The position numbers were made by a program, and so were the translations under genes. 64,000 nucleotides of DNA, taken from Siphonodentalium dalli. Its lineage: Eukaryota; Mollusca; Scaphopoda; Gadilida; Siphonodentaliidae. The DNA is taken from NCBI GenBank assembly GCA_032622095.1, contig CP136068.1:53500443-53564442 (forward strand), in the 5' to 3' direction. The notes under the pieces are model-generated. The model was not told the DNA's origin. It made no database searches and saw only the letters and a list, made by a program, of their open reading frames with translations. Shown here piece by piece: positions 4,312 to 64,000 of this stretch. The stretch's first letter is position 1. Each line of letters starts with the position of its first letter.

Positions 4312-7219
4312 TAGCTCAACTTGGAAAGAGAATAATTTAATGTGTTACTGTCAATGGAGTGATTAGGAATGTGGAAAGTTGAATGTCTAATACTAGTTTA
4401 TCAACATGAAAAGATATATATATACATGTATATAAAAGTAAAATCTAAGATGGTTGCTGGCGGCTATGTTTTAATGACAAATAACCCCAAAATGACTCGT
4501 TCCCATCTACATGTCAATTTCAACAGCCATGACAAATTTTATGATGATCAGACTAAAGGTACGACCTGTAGCCCGTGCTAAAGGATTTAGTCATACAAAG
4601 AGTAAAATCTAAGATGACTGACAGCGGCCATGTTTTTTGGCCGAATGACCCCAAAATGACTCGTTCCCATCTACAAGTCAATATTAACACCCACGACAAA
4701 TGTCATGATGATCAGATGAACAGTACGACCTGTAGCCCGTGCTAATGGATTGAATTTTGAAATATGTTTTTTTTCCGAATGACCCCAAAATGACTCGTTC
4801 CCATCTACATTCCAATTTCAACATCCATGACAAATTTCATAATAATCGGTCCAAAGGTACGAACTGTAGCCCGTGCTAAAGGATTTAGTCATACAAAGAG
4901 TAAAATCCAAGATGGCTGCTGGCGGCCATGTTTTTTGGCCGAATAGCCCCAAAATGACTCGTTCCCATTTAGATGTCATTGTTAACATCCATGACAAATT
5001 TCATGATGATCTGACCAAAGGTACGACCTGTAGCCCGTGCTAAAGGATTTAGTCATGCAAAGAGTAAAATCTAAGATAGCCGCCAGCGGCCATGTTTTTT
5101 GGCCAAATGACCCCCAATATGACTCGTTCCCATCTACATGTCAGTATTAACATCCATGACAAATTTCATGATGATCAGACTAAAGGTACGACCTGTAGCC
5201 CGTGCAAAAGAATTGAATTTTGAAATCAAAGATGGCCACTGGTGGCCATGTTTTTCGACCGAATGACCCCAAAATGACTCGTTCCCATCTACATGTCATT
5301 GTTAACATCCAAGCCAAATTTCATGATGATCAGACTAAAGGTACGACATGTAGCCCGTGCTAAAAATTTAGTCATACAAAGAGTAAAATCCAAAATGGCT
5401 GCTGGCGGCCATGTTTTTCGGCCGAATGACCCCAAAATGACTCGTTCCCATCTACATGTCATTGTTAACATCCATGACAAATTTCATGATGATCGGATTA
5501 AAGGTACGACCTGTAGCCCGTGCTAAAGGATTTAGTCATACAAAGAGTAAAATCCAAGATGGCTGCTGGCGGCCATGTTTTTGGGACAAACGACCCCAAA
5601 ATTACTCGTTCCCATCTACATGTCAATATTAACATCCATGACAAATTTGATGATGATCAGACTAAAGGTACGACCTGTAGCCCGTGCTATAGAATTTAGT
5701 CATACAAAGAGTAAAATCCAAGATGGCTGCTGGCCGCCATGTTTTTTGGCCGAATGACCCCAAAATTACTCGTTCCCATCTACATGTCAATATTAACATC
5801 CATGACAAATTTCATGATGATCAGACGAACAGTACGACCTGTGGCCCGTGCTAATGGATTGAATTTTGAAATCCAAGATGGCCGCTGGCGGCTATTGTTT
5901 TTTGTCCGAATGACCCCAAAATGACTCGTTCTCATCTACATTCCAATTTCAACAGCCATGACAAATTTTATGATGATTGGACTAAAGGTACGACCTGTAG
6001 CCCGTGCTAAAGGATTTAGTCATACAAAGAGTAAAATCAAAGATGCCTGCTGGCGGCCATGTTTTTTGACCGAACGACCCCAAAATGACTCGTTCCCATC
6101 TACATGTTATTATCAACATTCATGACAAATTTTATGATGATCAGACTAAAGGTACGACCTGTAGCCCGTGCTAAAGGATTTAGTCATACAAAGAGTAAAA
6201 TCCAAGATGGCTGCTGGCGGCCATGTTTTTGGGCCAAATGACCCCAAAATTACTCTTTCCCATCTACATGTCAATATTAACATCCATGACAAATTTGATG
6301 ATGATCAGACTAAAGGTACGACCTGTAGCCCGTGCTAAAGAATTTAGTCATACAAAGAGTAAAATCCAAGATGGCTGCTGGCCGCCATGTTTTTTGGCCG
6401 AATGACCCCAAAATTACTCGTTCCCATCTACATGTCAATATTAATATCCATGACAAATTTCATGATGATCAGACGAACAGTACGACCTGTGGCCCGTGCT
6501 AATGGATTGAATTTTGAAATCCAAGATGTCCACTGGCGGCCATGTTTTTTGTCCGAATGACCCCAAAATGACTCGTTCCCATCTACATTCCAATTTCAAC
6601 AGCCATGACAAATTTTATGATGATCGGACTAAAGGTACGACCTGTAGCCCGTGCTAAAGGATTTAGTCATACAAAGAGTGAAATCAAAGATGCCTGCTGG
6701 CGGCCATGTTTTTTGGCCGAATGACCCCAAAATGACTCGTTCCCATCTACATGTCATTATTAACATTCTTGACAAATTTTATGATGATCAGACTAAAAGT
6801 ACGACCTGTAGCCCGTGCTAAAGAATTTAGTCATACAAAGAGTAAAATCCAAGATGGCTGCTGGCGGCCATGTTTTTGGGCCAAATGACCCCAAAATTAC
6901 TTGTTCCCATCTACATGTCAATATTAACATCCATGACAAATTTCATGACGATCAGACAAACAGTACGCCCTGTAGCATGTGCTAATGGATTGAATTTTGA
7001 AATGCAAGATGGCCACTGGCGGCCATGTTTTTTTACCGAATGACCCCAAAATTAATCATTCTGGTCTAAATGTTGATGTCAACAGCTATGACAAATTTCA
7101 TAATGATCCGACCAAAGGTACGACCTGTAGACTGCATTGTTGACGCCTTACGTACACACGCACACACGGACGACAAAGCCATGGCAATAGCTCAAACTTT
7201 ACAAAGTAAAGTTGAGCTA
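4312..7219 (+). mobile_element. Foldback-ended element with 160-bp monomers, long copy
   Basis: It opens with TAGCTCAACTTGGAAAGAG and closes with AAAGTAAAGTTGAGCTA. Between them are about 17 monomers spaced mostly 154-169 bp apart, judged by the GTACGACCTGTAGCCCGTGC landmark. Two monomer types alternate: one with GGATTTAGTCATACAAAGAG and one with GGATTGAATTTTGAAATCCA. There is no coding capacity. The preceding GAAAGTGTCAATGACAC is shared by the 18874 copy, so the true left end may be slightly further out. Confidence 0.75.
5525..6980 (+). repeat. Four-monomer higher-order repeat inside the long element
   Basis: Distinctive monomer variants recur in the same order. They are TTTTTGGG(A/C)CAAA, then GCTGGCCGCCATG, then the GAATTTTGAAATCC type, then AAAGATGCCTGCTGG. 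Equivalent landmarks are about 645-655 bp apart (5525, 6170, 6818; 5683, 6338; 5851, 6498; 6008, 6659). This shows amplification in blocks of four monomers. Confidence 0.65.
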
Positions 7220-9462
7220 ACAATGAATACTATTGTGCTGTAACATAATCTCAAATTGGCACACAGGAAGATTATACCATGGGGTGCCGGCACTCAACTT
7301 GTTCAAGCCACATGAATAGAACTAATAATATTCACTTTTGAATTTTTTCCGCTATCGAAATAAGTTGATAGATAAACCTGAACTACCTTTCATTGAGCAT
7401 TATATGTCCCAAAAAGACGCATTGAAGTCATAAAGAATACACAATTTGTAACCCAATTTTTGGGCCCCGAACATAAACTGACATTCATAGGAATTTTGGA
7501 AGCGGAAAAATGAATATCCGGAAAAGGTACACAATCCAATTTGATGGTCCCCCATATCCAGTTACAATGACGGAATTTCAATAAATGCCGATTTAGTTAT
7601 CCAAATTAGTGTATTACCAATAAATACTCATAACGATACCAAGCAGGATCTTATATTTGCCAAAAAAAGTCCTATAATAATGTTTCTTCTTGATGGTTTG
7701 TACGACGAGCGAGTGCGCTTTGCAACTTCCATATATGGTGATGCCCATAGTTTTAGTGGAAATCCCCACACGTCATGAGAAATGTAAACATTTCCACATG
7801 TAACCGACATGCTGTTATATAACAGGACTATCTGCATGACTAAAACATGCTTACCAATTCGTAAATAAGAATATGTTATATATCCGTACGTCAACTATCA
7901 AAAGTTATCTTATTTGTTGTTGCTGACGTTACTTTTAATCATGCTATATTCCGAAGTTAATTTACCATAGCATTGATCGTTATTGCAAAGTCACAGCGAA
8001 TTGTGACGGCGTCTGCACATGTCCATATATTTCTGGAAGAAGATAATTCAAATATTTGCCAGGCCGCCAAATAGTCGATGTGGTGAAAGACAACAGATTT
8101 AAAAAAAATGATATCTGATAACTTTGAGCTTTGATGGGTGGGTTCCTCGACTCAAATCAAATATTTTTTATCCCGAAGCCGATGAAATAGTATTTTAGGG
8201 ACGTTTAATTGGATTATGCATCTCTAACATGAAACTATTTAAAAACTTTACGCTCTGCTTTCTCTTCATTTTAATAAAAAATTATGTAGTACATGTACCA
8301 TAAAGCGGTTCAGAGTGACGACAGCTCTAGATTTTGTTCCCATTGTCTACTGTTGCAATTTTTACGCGACCGCTGACTAATAACATTAAACTGGCACAAA
8401 CGAAACGATCTCAAATTCATCAAAAAGCAGAAGAAACAAAACACATATTTTCAGCACTGTATCAACCTATTTGTTCGGAAATTTCCACGTAGGTATGTTT
8501 TGAGATATGCCTCTTATATAATTATATATTTACATACATCTAATATCGCTTCCCCCATAGCATTCCGTTAGACACATCCCCTGAGTCAATGTGTTCATAA
8601 ACCTATGAACGTAATGTGACGTCACTTTCAATGTCGTTCATAGGTTTATGAACACATTGATCCCGGAAATCAATACCCTACCCCTAAAGCTCATCTCCTG
8701 TTTACACAACCCACATTTCGGCATTTGTTGAGAAGTACGTGTGGAGATATCTCACATCACAGCTATGTTATAACATAAAGACGACACTCTGTTTATAACC
8801 CCACACATTTCGAAACATCGCAAACAATGGTGTTTGCTCATATGCATAATTATCGTTTTTAATTTGCAATTGAAATACGTTGTGCATATATAGTGTTGCG
8901 ACCGACGTAAATTCGTTTTATGGTGTAAGGTTCGTATATTGGGTCTTCTCACATGAGCACCGTGGACCACATAGTTGCACGATAGCATTATGCTGCAGCT
9001 AATACTGAAATACCGCAGACAAATGCACAATCGAGCGACCATACAATATGTTTCGTGTTTATAACCGCGCTACTCAGTCGAGTTTGATCATTTCCTGGCT
9101 GCTACAAATATTCCCCCGACCTAACAAATATATCATTATGGTAGAACGGCATGTTGTCAATTTCCTATCCACAACCGAAACTTAATTGTTAGTTTCAGAT
9201 ATTATCATACTTGAAATCAACACATCTACATTCATTACAAGCTAAACAAGACATTTCGTCATATGTGTATACTTTACTGTGAAATTGTGTTTTCCGCTCT
9301 CCGTCAATGGATTCTCACAATGTTTGGTTTTCTAAATAGCGAGGATTCGAACTGTCCGAACTGAACTCCATGCGTTCAATTAAGTTGAATAAATAGTGGG
9401 AAAGACAGACATTTCCTAGTTCATAATGAATTTCAGTATATAAATATAAATAATAAATGGCA
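7220..9462. other. Intergenic stretch, no gene seen
   Basis: AT-rich unique-looking DNA with ORFs under 100 codons, none with recognisable motifs or splice context. The only structured item is the palindrome at 8586-8660. Confidence 0.5.
8586..8660. repeat. 75-bp foldback palindrome
   Basis: TCAATGTGTTCATAAACCTA at the left is exactly complementary to TAGGTTTATGAACACATTGA at the right. The loop contains TGACGTCA, a CRE-like palindrome. Confidence 0.7.
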
Positions 9463-42000: not shown

Positions 42001-45000
42001 TCATAATCACTTTAAAAGAAGTAGATATCTAAAGAGATAAATCTAAAAAAAAAAATTTGGAGTTATGTCCCTGGCCCCGCCCACATTTGACCCAGTGACC
42101 TGATTTGAACAAATCTGAACCCCAGTCATCCAAGGATCCTTCATACCAAATATGAACCCATATAGCCTGATGGTATTTGAGAAGAAGTCACTTTAAGAAT
42201 ACTATGGAGGGAAAGAGTTATGGCCCTGGCTTCGCAACTATTTCAAGTGAACTCATTTGAACAAATCTGAATGTGAGTCACTAGGGAACATCCACACCAA
42301 ATATGAAACCATTCGGTCTTATTGTTCTGAAGAAGATGTTTAAAAGAATTACTATGGTGGGAAAGAGTTATGGCCCTGGCTTCGCAACTATTTGACCCAG
42401 TGACGGCATTTGAACAAACCTGAATGAGAATCACCTAGGGAACATCCACACCAAATATGAACCCATTTGGTCTTATGGTTCCAGAGGAGAAGATGTTCAA
42501 ATAAATGTTGTCGGACGGATGGACGGACAGACGATGGACGGACGAGGAGTGATGACTATAGCTCCGCCGGAGCACAGGTAGGGTGGCTGGTTGATAATTA
42601 AATCTCTTATCTCCGCCCCTATTTGATCAAACGTGAATCCCTATCTATGAGATCCATTCATTTGGTAATTTCAGACATTAGATTTTAAGAGTTGAACTGA
42701 ACTGATTTTCCTAAAATGACCCCAAATCTGAAAAAATCTAAACCCCAGTCACAGAAGGACCCTCCATACCAAACATAAGCTAATTAGTCCAGATGGTTCT
42801 TGAGAAGAAATTGTTTTAAGAATTACTATGGAAGGAAAGAGTTATGGCCCTGACTTCTCACCTATTTGACCTGATGAACTCATTTGAACAAATCTGAATG
42901 TGAGTCACCTGGGGGACATCCACACCTAAATATATAAACCCATTTGGTCTTTAATATGTATCTGGAGAAGAAAACAATTGATGGACGGATAGAGACATAA
43001 TGACAGATGGATGGATGGGAGAACAGTCTGACATAGAGACTGACAAATTCAATCCAATATACCCCCCAAGTTTTCTTTGCAAAATCAGGGTATAATGAGT
43101 TCAACTGGATACTGGTGGTTAAGAACATAATATTCGAACAGACAAGCCTGAACATAGTGTCTGACATTTGCAGAATGAGGTCACCAAAGGGTGAATTTAA
43201 TGACACAATCCTGCAATGCGGGCTAGCATCACCAAACTCACCCTCTGGGGACCTCATTCTGTGTAGGCCTCAACTGCTATGGGAGACATAGCATTAGATT
43301 GAAGTTCTCCAGTTAAAGTTGGTGATGTGCACTCATTGGGCACCTCAATTATGCATTTTATATTCACAATATTAGGGGATATAGAAACTAAACAGAAGGG
43401 AAAAAGTAAGTAAAAATGTCAATTTAAGTGCCTATATACTTCCCAGAAGATGAGGCCTAAGCAGAATGAGGACCATGGCTAGTGTATTTGGTGATGCTAG
43501 ACTGCTGTGCAGGGTAGCATAACTAAATTCACCCTCTGGGGACCTCATTCTGCAAATGCCAGACACACTAAATTCAGGTTAGAGAACAATACTTTATTTT
43601 AATAACACACACTGGCATGAGTGCTAGCTAAGCATTAGTTCACACCTGTCAGCCTGATAAACATCTCAATTGATGACTGTGTGTGTATTTATATTAACTC
43701 TCTCTCTCTCTCTGTCTGTAGCTAACACAATTGACTTAATCTGCTGGTGGGAGAGATCCTGTGAGTTAGGAGATGAGATAGGGTGGAATGCTGTTGGGTG
43801 GGGGCAGGGTGGGGTTCTGGGTCATGTGGGAGGAGGGTGATAAAAAAAAAAATTATATGTTAAATTGATCAAGGAGTTCCGGAATTTTTAATTTTTTTTT
43901 TTGGAATTATGGCCCTGGCTCCACCCCTATTTGACTCAGTGAACCCATTTGAACAAATCTGAACCCCAGTCATTCAATGACCCCCCATACCAAATATAAA
44001 CTAAATTGGCATAATGGTTCTAGACAAGAAGTCGTTATAAGAATTACCAAGGAGGAATATAGTTATGGCCCTGGTTTCGCAACTATTTGACACAGTGACC
44101 TCATTTGAACAAATCTGAATGACAGTCACCTAGGGAACATCCACACCAAATATGATCAAAATGCAAAAATGTAATTTTTTTGTTTTTCGAGTTATGTCCC
44201 TGGCTCTGTCCCTATTTGACCCAGTGAACCAATTTGAACAAATCTGATTCCCAGTCACCCAAGGTCCCTCAGTACCAAATATAAGCTAAATCAACCCAAT
44301 ATTTTTTTAGAAGAAGTCATTGTAAGAATTACTATGAGTTATGGCCCTGGTTTCTCAACTAATTGACCGGGTGACCTCATTTGAACAAATCTGAACACCA
44401 GTCACCCAAGGACCCTCCATACCAAATATTAGCTAAATCGGCACAATGGTTATGGACAAGAAGTTGTTGTAAGAATTACTATGGAGGAATAGAGTTATGG
44501 CCCTGGTTTCGCAACTATTTGACCCAGTGACCTCATTTGAACAAATCTGAATGAGAGTCACCTAGGGAACATCCACACCAAATATGAACCAATTCGGTAT
44601 GATGGTTTCAGAGGAGAAGATGTTTTTAAAAAAGTTGACGGATGGACGGACGATGGACGAGGAGTGATGACTATAGCTCCACCGGAGACTTCGTCTCAGG
44701 TGAGCTAATAAAAGCTCGGACAAAATTATACATGTTGCAAAAATTTTCTTAGTCAAAAAAGGGGGAATAACTCCAACAAAAAAAAGTCCGACAGACGTCA
44801 TAATGGTTCCCATGGTGGTTGATGCCTGTGCTAATTTCACGGAAATTGATCAAAAAACAGCTGAGAAAAACTCCGGACAAATTTGTGTCCACGGATGGAC
44901 GGACGGACGACTGACGGACGGACAAGCTGACTCCAGTATACCCCCCCTAACGGGGGGTATAATACAACAGTTTAGGGTCCTGCGAATTGGAAATTTTGAT

Positions 45001-48000
45001 CGAATCGAATCGATGAAATCGAATCGAATATCGAATCGAATCACACCTGTGTGTTGTATTCTCATTTAGGCATGTTTTGTCCACAAATAGACGAATTTTT
45101 AAATGTGCTATGAACTTCCATGAAGTTCCATCGGCGATCAGCCGTCGTTCGCGATACTATTAACTTCAATTGATAATTGCAAAAAATCGAGATAAAACTC
45201 CAGAGAAAAGCTTCAACATTCAGATAATCTGCAGTATAGGTCTAGCGCTTTCGTTAATGTTTAACTTCATCAGGACCGAGTTTGGCTTGTGATTTTTTGA
45301 GGATTTTGCTTGCCTTTTATACTGTTTGTTATGGGTCTCCAATTGAATTGGTCAGTGTAGAAGGGTCAAGGGGTTGTGAGAAGGATGCTCGGAAGTGCGG
45401 GTAACAAATGCAGGTAAGTGGTTCGTATTGGTGTTTAGCCTGTGTGGTGGGGGAGCATTTTAAATACGGGTAATTGGTGCGTGTAATCAACGTGGTGGTG
45501 GTGATTATGCATTTCCGAAATTGCGGGTAACAAGTGCGGGTATCAAGGGTTTATGGTGGGAAAGCACAAAGTCACTGAAGTGGAGGTAACATCGTTTGTG
45601 TGGGTATTATGGACGGTTTGGTGTGTGCGTGGTCTGTTTGAGTAGGTGTATACCTGTTTAGGTATGAGGGCAACAGTGGTTTAGATCCGTAAAATGAGCC
45701 ATTTGTTGGCGCTGGTAAGTTTTTGACGTGCGGGTAACAACGAGTTTCTGTTGTTCGAGAGGATCCAAGCAGAACGCCTTTATCACCCAAACATCATAAG
45801 GTATAGTATCCTTTTTGATTGGTCTCCTCCCACCCACATCGCCCAACTAAGCACTTCGCCAACCATGACCTTCCGGTCTGTTTCCGTACCATTCAATTTC
45901 GTACCATTAAACCTTGAACAACAGAAACGTCCAAAACTTACCAGCGCCAACAAATGGCTCATTTTACGGATCTAAACCACTGTTACCTGCATACCTAAAC
46001 AGGTGTACACCTACTCAAACAGACCACATGCACACCAAACCGTCCAAATACCCGCACAAACGATGTTACCCACACTCCCACTTCCGTGACTTAGTGCTTT
46101 CCCACCACAAACCCAAGATACCCGCACTTGTTACCCGCAATTTCAGAAATGCTTAATTACCACCACCACGTTGATTACCCGCACCAATTATCTGCATTTA
46201 AAATGCTCACACAGGCTAAACACCAATACGAACCACTTACCCGCATTTGTTACCCGCACTTTCGAGCATCCTTCTCACAACCCCCTGACCCTTCTACACT
46301 GACCAATCAAATTGGAGACCCACAACAAACAGTATAAAAGGCAAGCAAAATCCTCAAAAAATCACACGCCAAACTCGGTCCATTATGACGTTAAACATTA
46401 ACGAAAGCGCTAGACCTATACTGCAGGTTATCTGAGTGTTGAAGCTTTTCTCTGGAGTTTTATCTCGATTTTTTGCCTTGCTCGCCAACTTTAACACTCA
46501 GATATGGCCTCGAGTTTTTCACTCTCCGATGTCACTAGTGACACAGCTTAACCACAGTGGATTTTCACTCTACGAACCCTCCAACGACTGGGGTTGAACA
46601 AGAAGGACTTTTAGTCGATTCTTTTATTATTTTCAATTGATAATTGTCGAGGGAGAAAAAACAGATCAAAACGTCCATGCGGCCGTCACGACGATTAATA
46701 TATAACCACTAAACGGATTATCGGAACTACAATCATGCGAAATTTGTACAGTTTGCACGTACATGCAAAATTCAAAATCGGCATTCGGAAACACCCGTTG
46801 TTATAAACTTGAAGATGCAACAACAGTCGAAGGGTAGCCTATTTATGTAGTGCTGGATGCTTCTTGGACAGATGATACCATAGATGGGTCGCTGTCCCAG
46901 ATGCTTGCGATTTATATGTAAGTTCATGCACTGAACTATAATAAACATGAATAACGGCGACGTATTGTCAAGTATCAAGGAACGCTCTGAAATTAAAAGT
47001 CAACTTCAAAAGAAAACACCGCCCACATGCACTTCTCGATGCCGGGAACACGTGTTGTTTACATTCTCAGCGATATTACATAAAGCGGAATCTGAGACGG
47101 ATAGTTGGCGAATATAACACTAGCGGTTGCTGAGTCTCATAGCTATTATAATTTAAGCGCGTCGTCAATCTCCGAGCTTTTGGCTACCATGTTCGAAGCT
47201 AGAATTCAGACATATTTAGTCGTCCTATAGTGGCTAATTTCTGGCTGTACTTATATTTAATAGCATACAAACATTCGCGATATACAATAAGAATATTCCC
47301 TGTCACTGAATCACGGCGATATTGGATCCACCAGGTCTGGTTCCGTAGTTTTACTTAACTTTCCATATATGGAAATCATGAATAATTCAAAAGATCTATA
47401 TATGAAAATGCCACTCCAATACTTTGACCAGTAGCACTAAAACCACGGAACCAGGGCTGGATGAATCTATGAAACCACGGAACCGGACCTGGTGGATCCA
47501 ATATGGCCACGAGTTAGTGACAGGGCGTATTATAAGGTGAATATTTTCATATTTTTCAGGAATTAAATGGTACATAAGCATTTCAGCGCTGAGGCAACTT
47601 AAACAAAGCAGATGTGGACCATTTCAGCGCTGAGGCAACTTAAACATTATCTTTTTCATGATTTTGTTATGATCTTGAATCCAATATAGGACGAGAAATA
47701 TATAGTTCATCCAGATAAAGATTTTTTTTTAACTAGAAAGTGTATATGATACATTACGATTCGTATATTATACATTACGATTTGTATATGATACATTACA
47801 AATAGTTACATCACAATTTTGTTACAATACGATTTGTTTGTGATACATTACGATTTGTTACATTACAATTTGTTTATGATACATACGATTTGTTTATGAT
47901 ACATTATGATTTGTTAATGATACATACGATTTGTTTATGATACATTATGATTTGTTTATGATACTAACGATTTGTTTATGATACATAACGATTTGTATAT

Positions 48001-62809: not shown

Positions 62810-64000
62810 AGTTCCATAGCTGAGAGCTAAGATAGGATAGCTGAGAGCTACGATAGTATAGCTGAGAGCTACGATAGGATAGCTGAGAGCTACGATACGA
62901 TAGCTGAGAGCTACGATACGATATCCGAGATCTACGATAGGATAGCTGAGAGCTATGATAGAATAGCTGAGAGCTATGATAGGATAGATGAGAGCTATGA
63001 TAGGATGGATGAGAGCTATGATAGGATAGTTGAGAGCTACGATAGGATAGCTGAGAGCTACGATAGGATAGCTGAGAGCTACGATAGGATAGCTGAGAGC
63101 TACGATAGGATAACTGAGAGCTATGATAGGATAGCTGAGAGCTACGATAGGATAGCTGAGAGCTATGATAGGATAGCTGAGAGCTATGATAGGATAGCTG
63201 AGAGCTATGATAGGATAGCTGAGAGCTACGATAGGATAGTTGAGAGCTACGATAGGATAGCTGAGAGCTACGATAGGATAGCTGAGAGCTATGATAGGAT
63301 AGCTGAGAGCTATGATAGGATAGCTGAGAGCTACGATAGGATAGATGAGAGCTACATGTATAATAGGATGGATGAGAGCTATGATAGGATAGTTGAGAGC
63401 TACGATAGGATAGCTGAGAGCTACGATAGGATAGATGAGAGCTACGATAGGATAGCTGAGAGCTATGATAGGATAGATGAGAGCTACATGTATAATAGGA
63501 TAGCTGAGAGCTATGATAAGATAGTTGAGAGCTACGATAGGATAGCTGAGAGCTACGATAGGATAGCTGAGAGCTACAATAGGATAGCTGAGAGCTATGA
63601 TAGGATAGCTGAGAGCTACGATAGGATAGCTGAGAGCTACGATAGGATAGCTGAGAGCTACGATAGGATAGCTGAGAGCTACGATAGGATAGCTGAGAGC
63701 TACGATAGGATAGCTGAGAGCTACAGTAGGATAGCTGAGAGCTACGATAGGATAGCTGAGAGCTACAGTAGGATAGCTGAGAGCTACGATAGGATAGCTG
63801 AGAGCTACAGTAGGATAGCTGAGAGCTACGATAGGATAGCTGAGAGCTATGATAGGATAACTGAGAGCTATGATAGGATAACTGAGAGCTAGGATACGAT
63901 TGCTGAGAGCTGATAGCATAGCTGAGAGCTACGATAGGATAACTGAGAGCTACGATAGGATAGCCGCGAGCTATGATAGTATAGCTGAGAGCTATGATAG
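62810..64000. repeat. 21-bp minisatellite, at least 55 copies, running off the window
   Basis: Unit AGCTGAGAGCTACGATAGGA plus T, with CTATGATAGG, GATGAGAGC and CTACAGTAGG variants and two ACATGTATAATAGG interruptions. Period 21 leaves long ORFs on both strands (396 and 295 codons, heptad ESYDRIA or ALSYPIV). These are not genes. Confidence 0.93.

What the first reader, a model, noticed from the sequence alone, without database searches (positions are those of the whole stretch)
45239..45277. Hammerhead-like ribozyme in an inverted retroelement arm
The minus strand carries CTGATGA, a stem II hairpin, GAAA, a minimal stem III and a TA cleavage site, enclosed by GGTC/GACC stem I. Known: type I hammerheads with tiny stem III occur in Penelope-like elements and retrozymes of animals. 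The extra A before stem II and the degenerate partner at 46377-46416 suggest one functional and one decayed copy.
Basis: partly seen in the sequence, partly recalled or inferred. Interest (0 to 1): 0.78.

Follow-up and report, generated by a model that had tools for sequence, protein, structure and literature searches.

The report
Hammerhead ribozyme in Penelope-like element
The motif is a minimal hammerhead ribozyme inside a short, gene-less, palindromic jumping element built like a Penelope retrotransposon and repeated many times in this genome; the kind is known, this family looks like a new variant of it.

Summary
Minus strand 45277-45239 reads GGTC-CTGATGA-A-GTTAAACATTAAC-GAAA-GCGCTA^GACC, and 46377-46416 is a broken copy in the opposite arm of one palindromic insertion, 45180-46631, flanked by a perfect 15-bp target duplication. 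It belongs to a repeat family: 256 genomic places carry the 25-mer just past the ribozyme, the reversed control none. The unit is about 1.49 kb, has no open frame above 106 aa in the two copies listed, and shows the anatomy published for Penelope-like elements: TATA box before the ribozyme, inverted second arm, truncated 5' ends, target duplications, and two alternative 3' ends (65 and 219 nt past the cleavage site), like the 'tail' left by two reverse-transcription start sites. The genome holds many GIY-YIG open frames in regular arrays, plausible helpers. Stem III is a 6-nt palindrome, so activity should need two copies; the majority 39-mer is predicted to form a double hammerhead, the window's own type prefers another dimer fold. 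The 'extra A' is family-wide, not decay. Rfam does not detect the motif, covariation cannot be judged, cleavage is untested. Known kind, new variant.

The parts
45165..45179 (.). Left target-site duplication TTCAATTGATAATTG (last G could also belong to the element end)
   Evidence: Read; found again by script (score 16 against a best of 12 in 10 shuffles)
45180..46631 (-). Whole insertion, 1452 bp; element sense is the minus strand (5' end at 46631, 3' end at 45180)
   Evidence: Boundaries from family alignments and the target duplication
45180..45758 (-). 3' arm (pseudo-LTR) with the intact ribozyme; ends at the family's A-end (...CGATTTTTTGC)
45313..45321 (-). TATA box TATAAAAGG, starting 44 nt 5' of the ribozyme; an initiator-like TCACA follows it by about 20 nt
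   Evidence: Sequence; TATAAAAGG or TATATAAGG in 31 of 34 aligned copies
45239..45277 (-). Hammerhead motif; predicted cleavage between 45243 and 45242 (TA^GACC)
45266..45266 (-). Extra A between the conserved A9 and stem II, a family-wide extra base
   Evidence: A in 31 and C in 2 of 33 aligned copies
45253..45265 (-). Stem II hairpin GTTAA-ACA-TTAAC (5 pairs here; 4 pairs in the majority type GTTAAACAATAAC)
45244..45249 (-). AGCGCT: two pairs and a 2-nt loop as a monomer, a 6-bp self-complementary duplex between two copies (stem III)
   Evidence: RNAcofold
45757..45759 (.). Junction of the two inverted arms, about 2 nt of microhomology (AG)
   Evidence: Alignment to a direct copy, read by eye
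45758..46477 (+). Inverted arm (second pseudo-LTR), ribozyme-sense on the plus strand
46333..46341 (+). TATA box of the inverted arm
46377..46416 (+). Broken hammerhead copy: CTGATGA replaced by CATTATGA, one base longer; other parts kept
46478..46631 (+). Tail B, 154 nt, present on this arm only; its end is the family's B-end (...CGATTCTTTTATTATT)
   Evidence: 139 genomic places of a 23-mer from it (up to 2 mismatches), 0 in the reversed control
46632..46646 (.). Right target-site duplication TTCAATTGATAATTG

Best explanation
45180-46631 is an insertion of a non-autonomous, Penelope-type retroelement. Shown by sequence: a multi-copy family with a unit of about 1.49 kb, target-site duplications, truncated 5' ends, a TATA box starting 44 nt before a minimal type I hammerhead, two alternative 3' ends downstream of the ribozyme (A at 65 nt, B at 219 nt past the cleavage site), and inverted copies whose arms point outward. 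Inferred: transcription starts just before the ribozyme; a Penelope-like GIY-YIG/RT protein supplied in trans nicks both strands of AT-rich target DNA and starts reverse transcription at A and at B, and the two cDNAs meet head to head, giving the palindrome. Inferred: the ribozyme works mainly when two copies meet (tandem or separate transcripts) through the AGCGCT duplex and trims tandem or read-through transcripts to unit length. The window's copy at 45239-45277 is sequence-intact; its partner is dead.
For: Copies: 41 matches, the window's own two arms included; 256 places of the 25-mer next to the ribozyme against 0 in the control. Target duplications: in 13 of 21 loci the flank next to the end recurs at the other boundary (boundary judged by eye) with a score above all 10 shuffles; two more (L033, L047) were read by eye; none secured in 6 (L032, L036, L039, L041, L045, L050). 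Two ends. 9 of 21 loci carry an inverted piece; in 8 of the 9 the two ends are one A-end and one B-end (in L037 and L044 the inverted piece is short, about 20-30 nt). Of 14 close pairs among the 100 listed exact places (of 256), 11 are inverted, all 11 outward-pointing. Unit length: direct spacings of 1483-1486 (the L027/L047 locus) and 1510 (C1:136816120). No long frame: at most 94 aa in L047 and 106 aa in L050. Helpers: 150 GIY-YIG matches, all 150 candidates that were scored, many in regular arrays of 4.4-4.9 kb with open frames up to 819 aa. Folding: the homodimer of the majority 39-mer has the double hammerhead as its minimum, -15.7 against 2 x -4.6 kcal/mol. Same layout in print: inverted pLTR, TSD, TATA, and a 'tail' on one of the inverted pLTRs (PMC3846280, passages); tail = stretch between two RT start sites, both DNA strands cut and extended, HHR near the start sites (PMC11167929, parts 1-2 of 4).
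Against: Rfam finds nothing (one sub-threshold place elsewhere). No covariation: 1 pair with a double change, equalled by 193 of 500 shuffles. The ribozyme is no better conserved than its surroundings (4.2% against 4.6% divergence), and 14 of 34 copies are broken. For the window's own stem II type the predicted homodimer (-18.1) prefers another pairing (UGAUG with CAUUA) that hides the core, so this copy may fold worse than the majority type. Every copy that spans the ribozyme came from RNA not cleaved there; among the 5' ends only that of L043 lies near the cleavage site, 9 nt past it. L032 has a 44-nt inverted piece that stops at neither A nor B. None of the entered family places (100 and 70, all on C1-C5) lies within 190 kb of the 85 entered GIY-YIG places, so a coding parent was not found.
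Confidence: 0.78

Rival explanations
1. The element is real and Penelope-type, but the ribozyme is a passenger without function: a fixed relic, mobilised because the protein recognises the region around the start sites, not because the RNA cuts itself.
For: No excess conservation over the surroundings; 14 of 34 copies broken, 5 of them by G12A at a CpG (two of the five share one flank and may be one insertion duplicated); every inserted copy that spans it was copied from uncut RNA; in the Anolis element, mutants without cleavage still inserted in vitro (PMC11167929).
Against: A review states that all available Penelope-like sequences display hammerhead motifs, usually minimal ones (PMC6155905, passage), which argues for selection; 20 of 34 copies keep the full core and stem I pairs; the AGCGCT palindrome suits dimer action.
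Confidence: 0.3
2. The palindrome is a DNA transposon or MITE with long terminal inverted repeats, and the hammerhead likeness is chance.
For: Long inverted arms with a target duplication; about 0.025 hammerhead-like hits are expected per window by chance.
Against: 12 of the 21 loci show no inverted piece, and many of them are direct and 5'-truncated; duplications vary in length (about 12 to over 20 bp); the ends differ (A against B); inversion junctions differ between copies.
Confidence: 0.04
3. It is an animal non-LTR retrozyme (small circular-RNA element) rather than a Penelope derivative.
For: Non-coding, type I hammerhead, target duplications, direct pairs at about 1.5 kb.
Against: Described animal retrozymes are expressed as RNAs of about 170-400 nt from short tandem repeats, mostly with canonical hammerheads (PMC7229834, parts 1-2 of 6 and passages); here the unit is 1.49 kb, only 3 of 14 close pairs are direct, and the tail and inverted arms follow the Penelope pattern.
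Confidence: 0.12

Closest known systems
Penelope-like elements with pseudo-LTRs, e.g. Pen2a_Av of Adineta vaga (PMC3846280, passages)
   Same: Two pLTRs plus an adjacent inverted pLTR, TATA and initiator-like motif in the pLTR, short target duplication, optional tail on one of the inverted pLTRs, partial tandems, great structural variety
   Different: Pen2a_Av has an 842-aa ORF (with one in-frame stop); here there is no such frame. Tail 31 bp there, 154 nt here. The authors favoured self-priming on an antisense template for the inverted arms; here two start sites explain the ends better.
Poseidon of Anolis carolinensis, PAc (PMC11167929, parts 1-2 of 4 read)
   Same: Hammerhead near two internal RT start sites; genomic ends at both; both DNA strands cut and extended in vitro; AT-rich targets
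   Different: PAc has an ORF starting at the ribozyme's stem II; here the AUG in the ribozyme core opens only 16 codons in 8 of 9 copies that could be tested
Minimal type I hammerheads with reduced stem III in Penelope-like elements (Cervera and de la Pena 2014; Lunse et al. 2017: both recalled, not seen; minimal hammerheads in these elements are mentioned in PMC7229834 and PMC6155905)
   Same: CUGAUGA/GAAA core, very small stem III, expected dimer action
   Different: An extra base between A9 and stem II here, fixed in the family (a similar extra A is recalled for the CChMVd viroid plus-strand ribozyme; the passages shown do not mention it)
Animal non-LTR retrozymes (PMC7229834, parts 1-2 of 6 and passages)
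   Same: Non-coding elements with type I hammerheads, suggested to borrow Penelope machinery
   Different: RNAs of about 170-400 nt from tandem units against a 1.49-kb unit in mostly single, truncated or inverted copies here

Membership tests
Type I hammerhead ribozyme | Core C3 U4 G5 A6 N7 G8 A9 / G12 A13 A14 / A15.1-U16.1 / H17 (criteria of PMC3088659, passage) | tested here: met
   Window copy 45239-45277 and 20 of 34 family copies including it
Type I hammerhead ribozyme | No mispair next to the core (pairs 10.1-11.1, 1.1-2.1, 15.1-16.1) and no core change | tested here: inconclusive
   All three pairs can form (G-C, G-C, A-U), but one extra base stands between A9 and 10.1 in all 33 aligned copies
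Type I hammerhead ribozyme | Stem III closed by a loop, or palindromic for dimer action | tested here: met
   Monomer: two pairs with a 2-nt loop, unlikely to be stable. Dimer: 6-bp AGCGCT duplex; predicted double hammerhead for the majority type; the window type keeps the 6-bp duplex but its core pairs otherwise
Type I hammerhead ribozyme | Match to curated models (Rfam) | tested here: not met
   No match; own genome one place elsewhere at 24.1 bits, below the cut-off of 34
Type I hammerhead ribozyme | Covarying stems across relatives | tested here: inconclusive
   26 distinct rows of 33, nearly identical; covariation not above shuffles
Type I hammerhead ribozyme | Self-cleavage | not testable with these tools
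   Needs an RNA assay
Penelope-like element (autonomous) | ORF with RT and GIY-YIG endonuclease | tested here: not met
   Longest stop-to-stop frames 94 aa (L047) and 106 aa (L050) in two long copies; these frames were not searched for domains
Penelope-type cis anatomy (non-autonomous derivative) | Pseudo-LTR with promoter motif, direct or inverted arrangement | tested here: met
Penelope-type cis anatomy (non-autonomous derivative) | Optional tail on one arm, i.e. two alternative RT starts | tested here: met
   A- and B-ends; one of each in 8 of 9 loci with an inverted piece (L032 is the exception)
Penelope-type cis anatomy (non-autonomous derivative) | Mobilised by a Penelope-like protein | not testable with these tools
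   GIY-YIG arrays exist in the genome but no shared ends were shown
Animal non-LTR retrozyme | Tandem units of about 150-450 bp with canonical type I hammerhead | tested here: not met
   Unit about 1.49 kb; 3 direct pairs of 14 close pairs

The most novel reading that the evidence does not exclude
Each palindromic insertion is the fossil of one reaction in which a dimeric Penelope-type enzyme primes both target strands on uncut RNA, one cDNA from start site A and the other from start site B, so that an inverted copy carries exactly one tail; the ribozyme next to the sites acts only as a dimer and sorts tandem transcripts before or after that reaction. A gene-less 1.5-kb satellite of Penelope elements would then carry every signal needed in cis. 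(Odds lowered from 0.35 to 0.3 on recheck, because L032 has an inverted piece ending at neither site.)
Probability: 0.3. Interest if true: 0.55.

Novelty: new variant of a known kind. Interest (0 to 1): 0.38.

Why it matters
How Penelope-like elements insert, and what their ribozyme is for, is still open; the 2024 in-vitro study calls the later steps yet to be validated. A small, gene-less family with many recent copies, readable target duplications and two sharp end types is a compact natural record of that reaction, and small enough to test as a donor RNA. In the listings of five searches of the held library I saw no paper on a non-autonomous Penelope family of this layout; most subscription journals are not held and most listed papers were not opened.

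Tried and rejected
Rfam scans at gathering and relaxed thresholds: nothing useful. Covariation within the family: copies too alike. An extended stem I (CAAACUC with GAGUGUUG) was considered by eye; both sides are almost invariant, so it is neither supported nor excluded. Looking for the autonomous parent: GIY-YIG search, then one 501-base look at the guessed start of an 818-aa frame; it held another reading frame and no ribozyme. Canonical hammerhead pattern in the genome: 73 places against 16 in the control, a good part of them in two tandem-repeat clusters. Viral contigs: 0 matches for two ribozyme patterns. The 'mixed ends' rule was also checked on pattern lists: of 11 inverted exact pairs a tail stands next to one arm in 6, next to neither in 5 (one of these, the C3:115921591 pair, has a tail by sequence in L048), next to both in 0; with a base rate of 24 tails per 100 places this list alone is not significant. 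Of 13 place-and-opposite-tail combinations printed there, one place (C3:154060805) has a tail of its own too. Only the 70 tail places on C1-C5 of the 100 listed, and 85 of the 150 GIY-YIG places, were entered. Census bias: loci were picked by similarity to 45200-45500, so A-type copies are favoured; L011 and L016 share one flank, and L023 and L049 another, so the 34 copies are not all independent insertions.

Full report
What was checked. A descriptor search finds this one site in the window on both strands; 200 dinucleotide shuffles gave 5 hits in all. Rfam 15 does not recognise it, even at E up to 10, and does not recognise a majority-type family copy either. In the own genome the Rfam type I model gave nothing at E 0.001 and one sub-threshold place elsewhere at E 1.69; no control genome passed the cut-off.

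The element. The two motifs lie in the arms of one palindromic insertion: long inverted-repeat blocks between 45179 and 46476, 522 of 556 aligned positions identical. TTCAATTGATAATTG stands at 45165-45179 and again at 46632-46646, so the insertion is 45180-46631. In ribozyme sense the 3' end of the element is at 45180.

The family. A 301-base query gave 41 matches, the window's own two arms included, at 90-100% identity. The 25-mer just 3' of the ribozyme occurs at 256 places with up to two mismatches, the reversed control at none. Twenty loci of 10 kb and eight shorter ones, plus the window, were aligned; two pairs among them share flanks (L011/L016, L023/L049). Repeat coverage falls off gradually on the 5' side of the ribozyme, the mark of 5'-truncated reverse transcripts, and there are two sharp 3' ends: the A-end at pLTR position 720, 65 nt past the predicted cleavage site, and the B-end at position 874, 219 nt past it. 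In 13 of 21 loci a script finds the flank again at the other boundary, scoring above all 10 shuffles (boundaries judged by eye; L034's lies in a simple repeat). L033 and L047 were added by eye; in L047 the script's own best match is a different, longer duplication of the flank. For L032, L036, L039, L041, L045 and L050 none was secured.

Structure of copies. The L027/L047 locus holds a longer copy with two ribozyme regions 1486 bp apart, the upstream one having lost the 5' side of stem I. L043 holds a full unit split by a nested stretch whose ends look like inverted repeats (by eye). Nine of the 21 loci carry an inverted piece. In eight (window, L033, L035, L037, L040, L044, L046, L048) the two ends are one A-end and one B-end; the inverted piece is only about 20-30 nt in L037 and L044. 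In L032 a 44-nt inverted piece ends at neither site. In the listed 100 exact places of the 25-mer, 14 neighbours lie within 3 kb: 11 inverted and all 11 outward-pointing, 3 direct. Two long copies have no open frame above 94 aa (L047) or 106 aa (L050), so the family looks non-autonomous.

The promoter side. TATAAAAGG starts 44 nt before the motif; a TCACA follows it by about 20 nt. A TATA box separated by 20 bp from an initiator-like TCACT is reported for a Penelope pLTR in Adineta vaga (PMC3846280, passages). If transcription starts there, the ribozyme lies within about the first 60 nt of the RNA. This is inference.

The ribozyme. Of 34 copies examined, 20 keep the full core and four standard stem I pairs, 14 do not. 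Five of the 14 carry G12A in a CpG, which may be repeated CpG decay. Divergence in the 39 nt is 4.2%, outside 4.6%: no sign that single copies are under selection. A formal pair count on 26 distinct rows shows no covariation beyond shuffles. A base between A9 and stem II is present in all 33 aligned copies (A in 31, C in 2). Stem III cannot be a proper hairpin (AG-CG-CU) but is a 6-nt palindrome. For the majority type the predicted best homodimer is the double hammerhead with intermolecular stem III and stem I (-15.7 against 2 x -4.6 kcal/mol); for the window's type another dimer wins (-18.1 against 2 x -5.0), which keeps the stem III duplex but pairs UGAUG of the core with CAUUA. Dimer action with an elongated stem III is described for newt and viroid hammerheads, and palindromic stem III sequences for others (PMC6155905 and PMC3088659, passages).

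How it most likely works. Published work on an Anolis Penelope-like element shows reverse transcription starting at two sites inside the RNA, near a hammerhead, with both DNA strands cut and extended; the stretch between the sites is the optional 'tail' seen in genomic copies (PMC11167929, parts 1-2 of 4). That study saw no difference in start site between the two strands. The A- and B-ends here fit the scheme, and inverted copies with one A- and one B-end would be the two cDNAs of one insertion joined head to head. The window junction shows about 2 nt of microhomology (by eye). The genome has many GIY-YIG open frames in regular arrays of 4.4-4.9 kb, so helpers are available; I could not show that any shares these ends, and none of the 85 entered GIY-YIG places lies within 190 kb of the entered family places on C1-C5. 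Inserted copies that span the ribozyme were made from RNA uncut at that point, and 5' ends do not gather at the cleavage site, so the data do not show that cleavage is part of insertion; in the Anolis study ribozyme mutants still inserted in vitro, and its ribozyme cut only with protein added.

Verdict.

Noticed in passing
G000 C1:22818006 and 22818054 (-), C2:105319783 (+), C2:196119714 (-), C4:216224075 (+), variant C1:127318855 (+): A second hammerhead-like family, CTGATGA-GTTGC-ATTTA-GCAAC-GAAAC with a perfect 5-bp stem II and no extra A; two copies only 48 bp apart.
   Followed up: no
G000, e.g. C5:66869267-66882835, C1:118763839-118777947, C7:152663365-152673420: Regular arrays of GIY-YIG open frames (period about 4.4-4.9 kb, frames up to 819 aa), probably autonomous Penelope-like elements in tandem.
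   Followed up: partly
L051 1-429 (C5:66871400-66871828): Upstream of one such GIY-YIG match a reading frame contains NMGINDRDSW...FPNAKILFQEINF, which recalls SGNH-type hydrolases (recalled likeness, not searched).
   Followed up: no
window 46377-46416 and family copies: The AUG inside the ribozyme core opens a 16-codon frame in 8 of 9 copies that could be tested and 78 codons in L047; another frame runs 63 codons through the tail in 5 of 9 copies. It may be a relic of a Penelope ORF start.
   Followed up: partly
L043 about 5690-8430: A nested stretch with inverted ends GGGGTCATCTCAAAACT...AGTTTTGAGATGACCCC splits the full unit, with a long G run inside.
   Followed up: no
window 47292-47351 and 47472-47531: Another inverted repeat, 60 nt arms, 85% complementary, 120 nt apart.
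   Followed up: no
window 44706-44960: Stretch with GACGGACGGACG repeats and a CCCCCCCTAACGGGGGG hairpin that looks like a dispersed repeat; a 77% match to 44706-44804 stands just after the A-end in L017.
   Followed up: no
window 63005-63889: Open frame of 295 aa that matches 34 Pfam families at once, probably a simple repeat.
   Followed up: no
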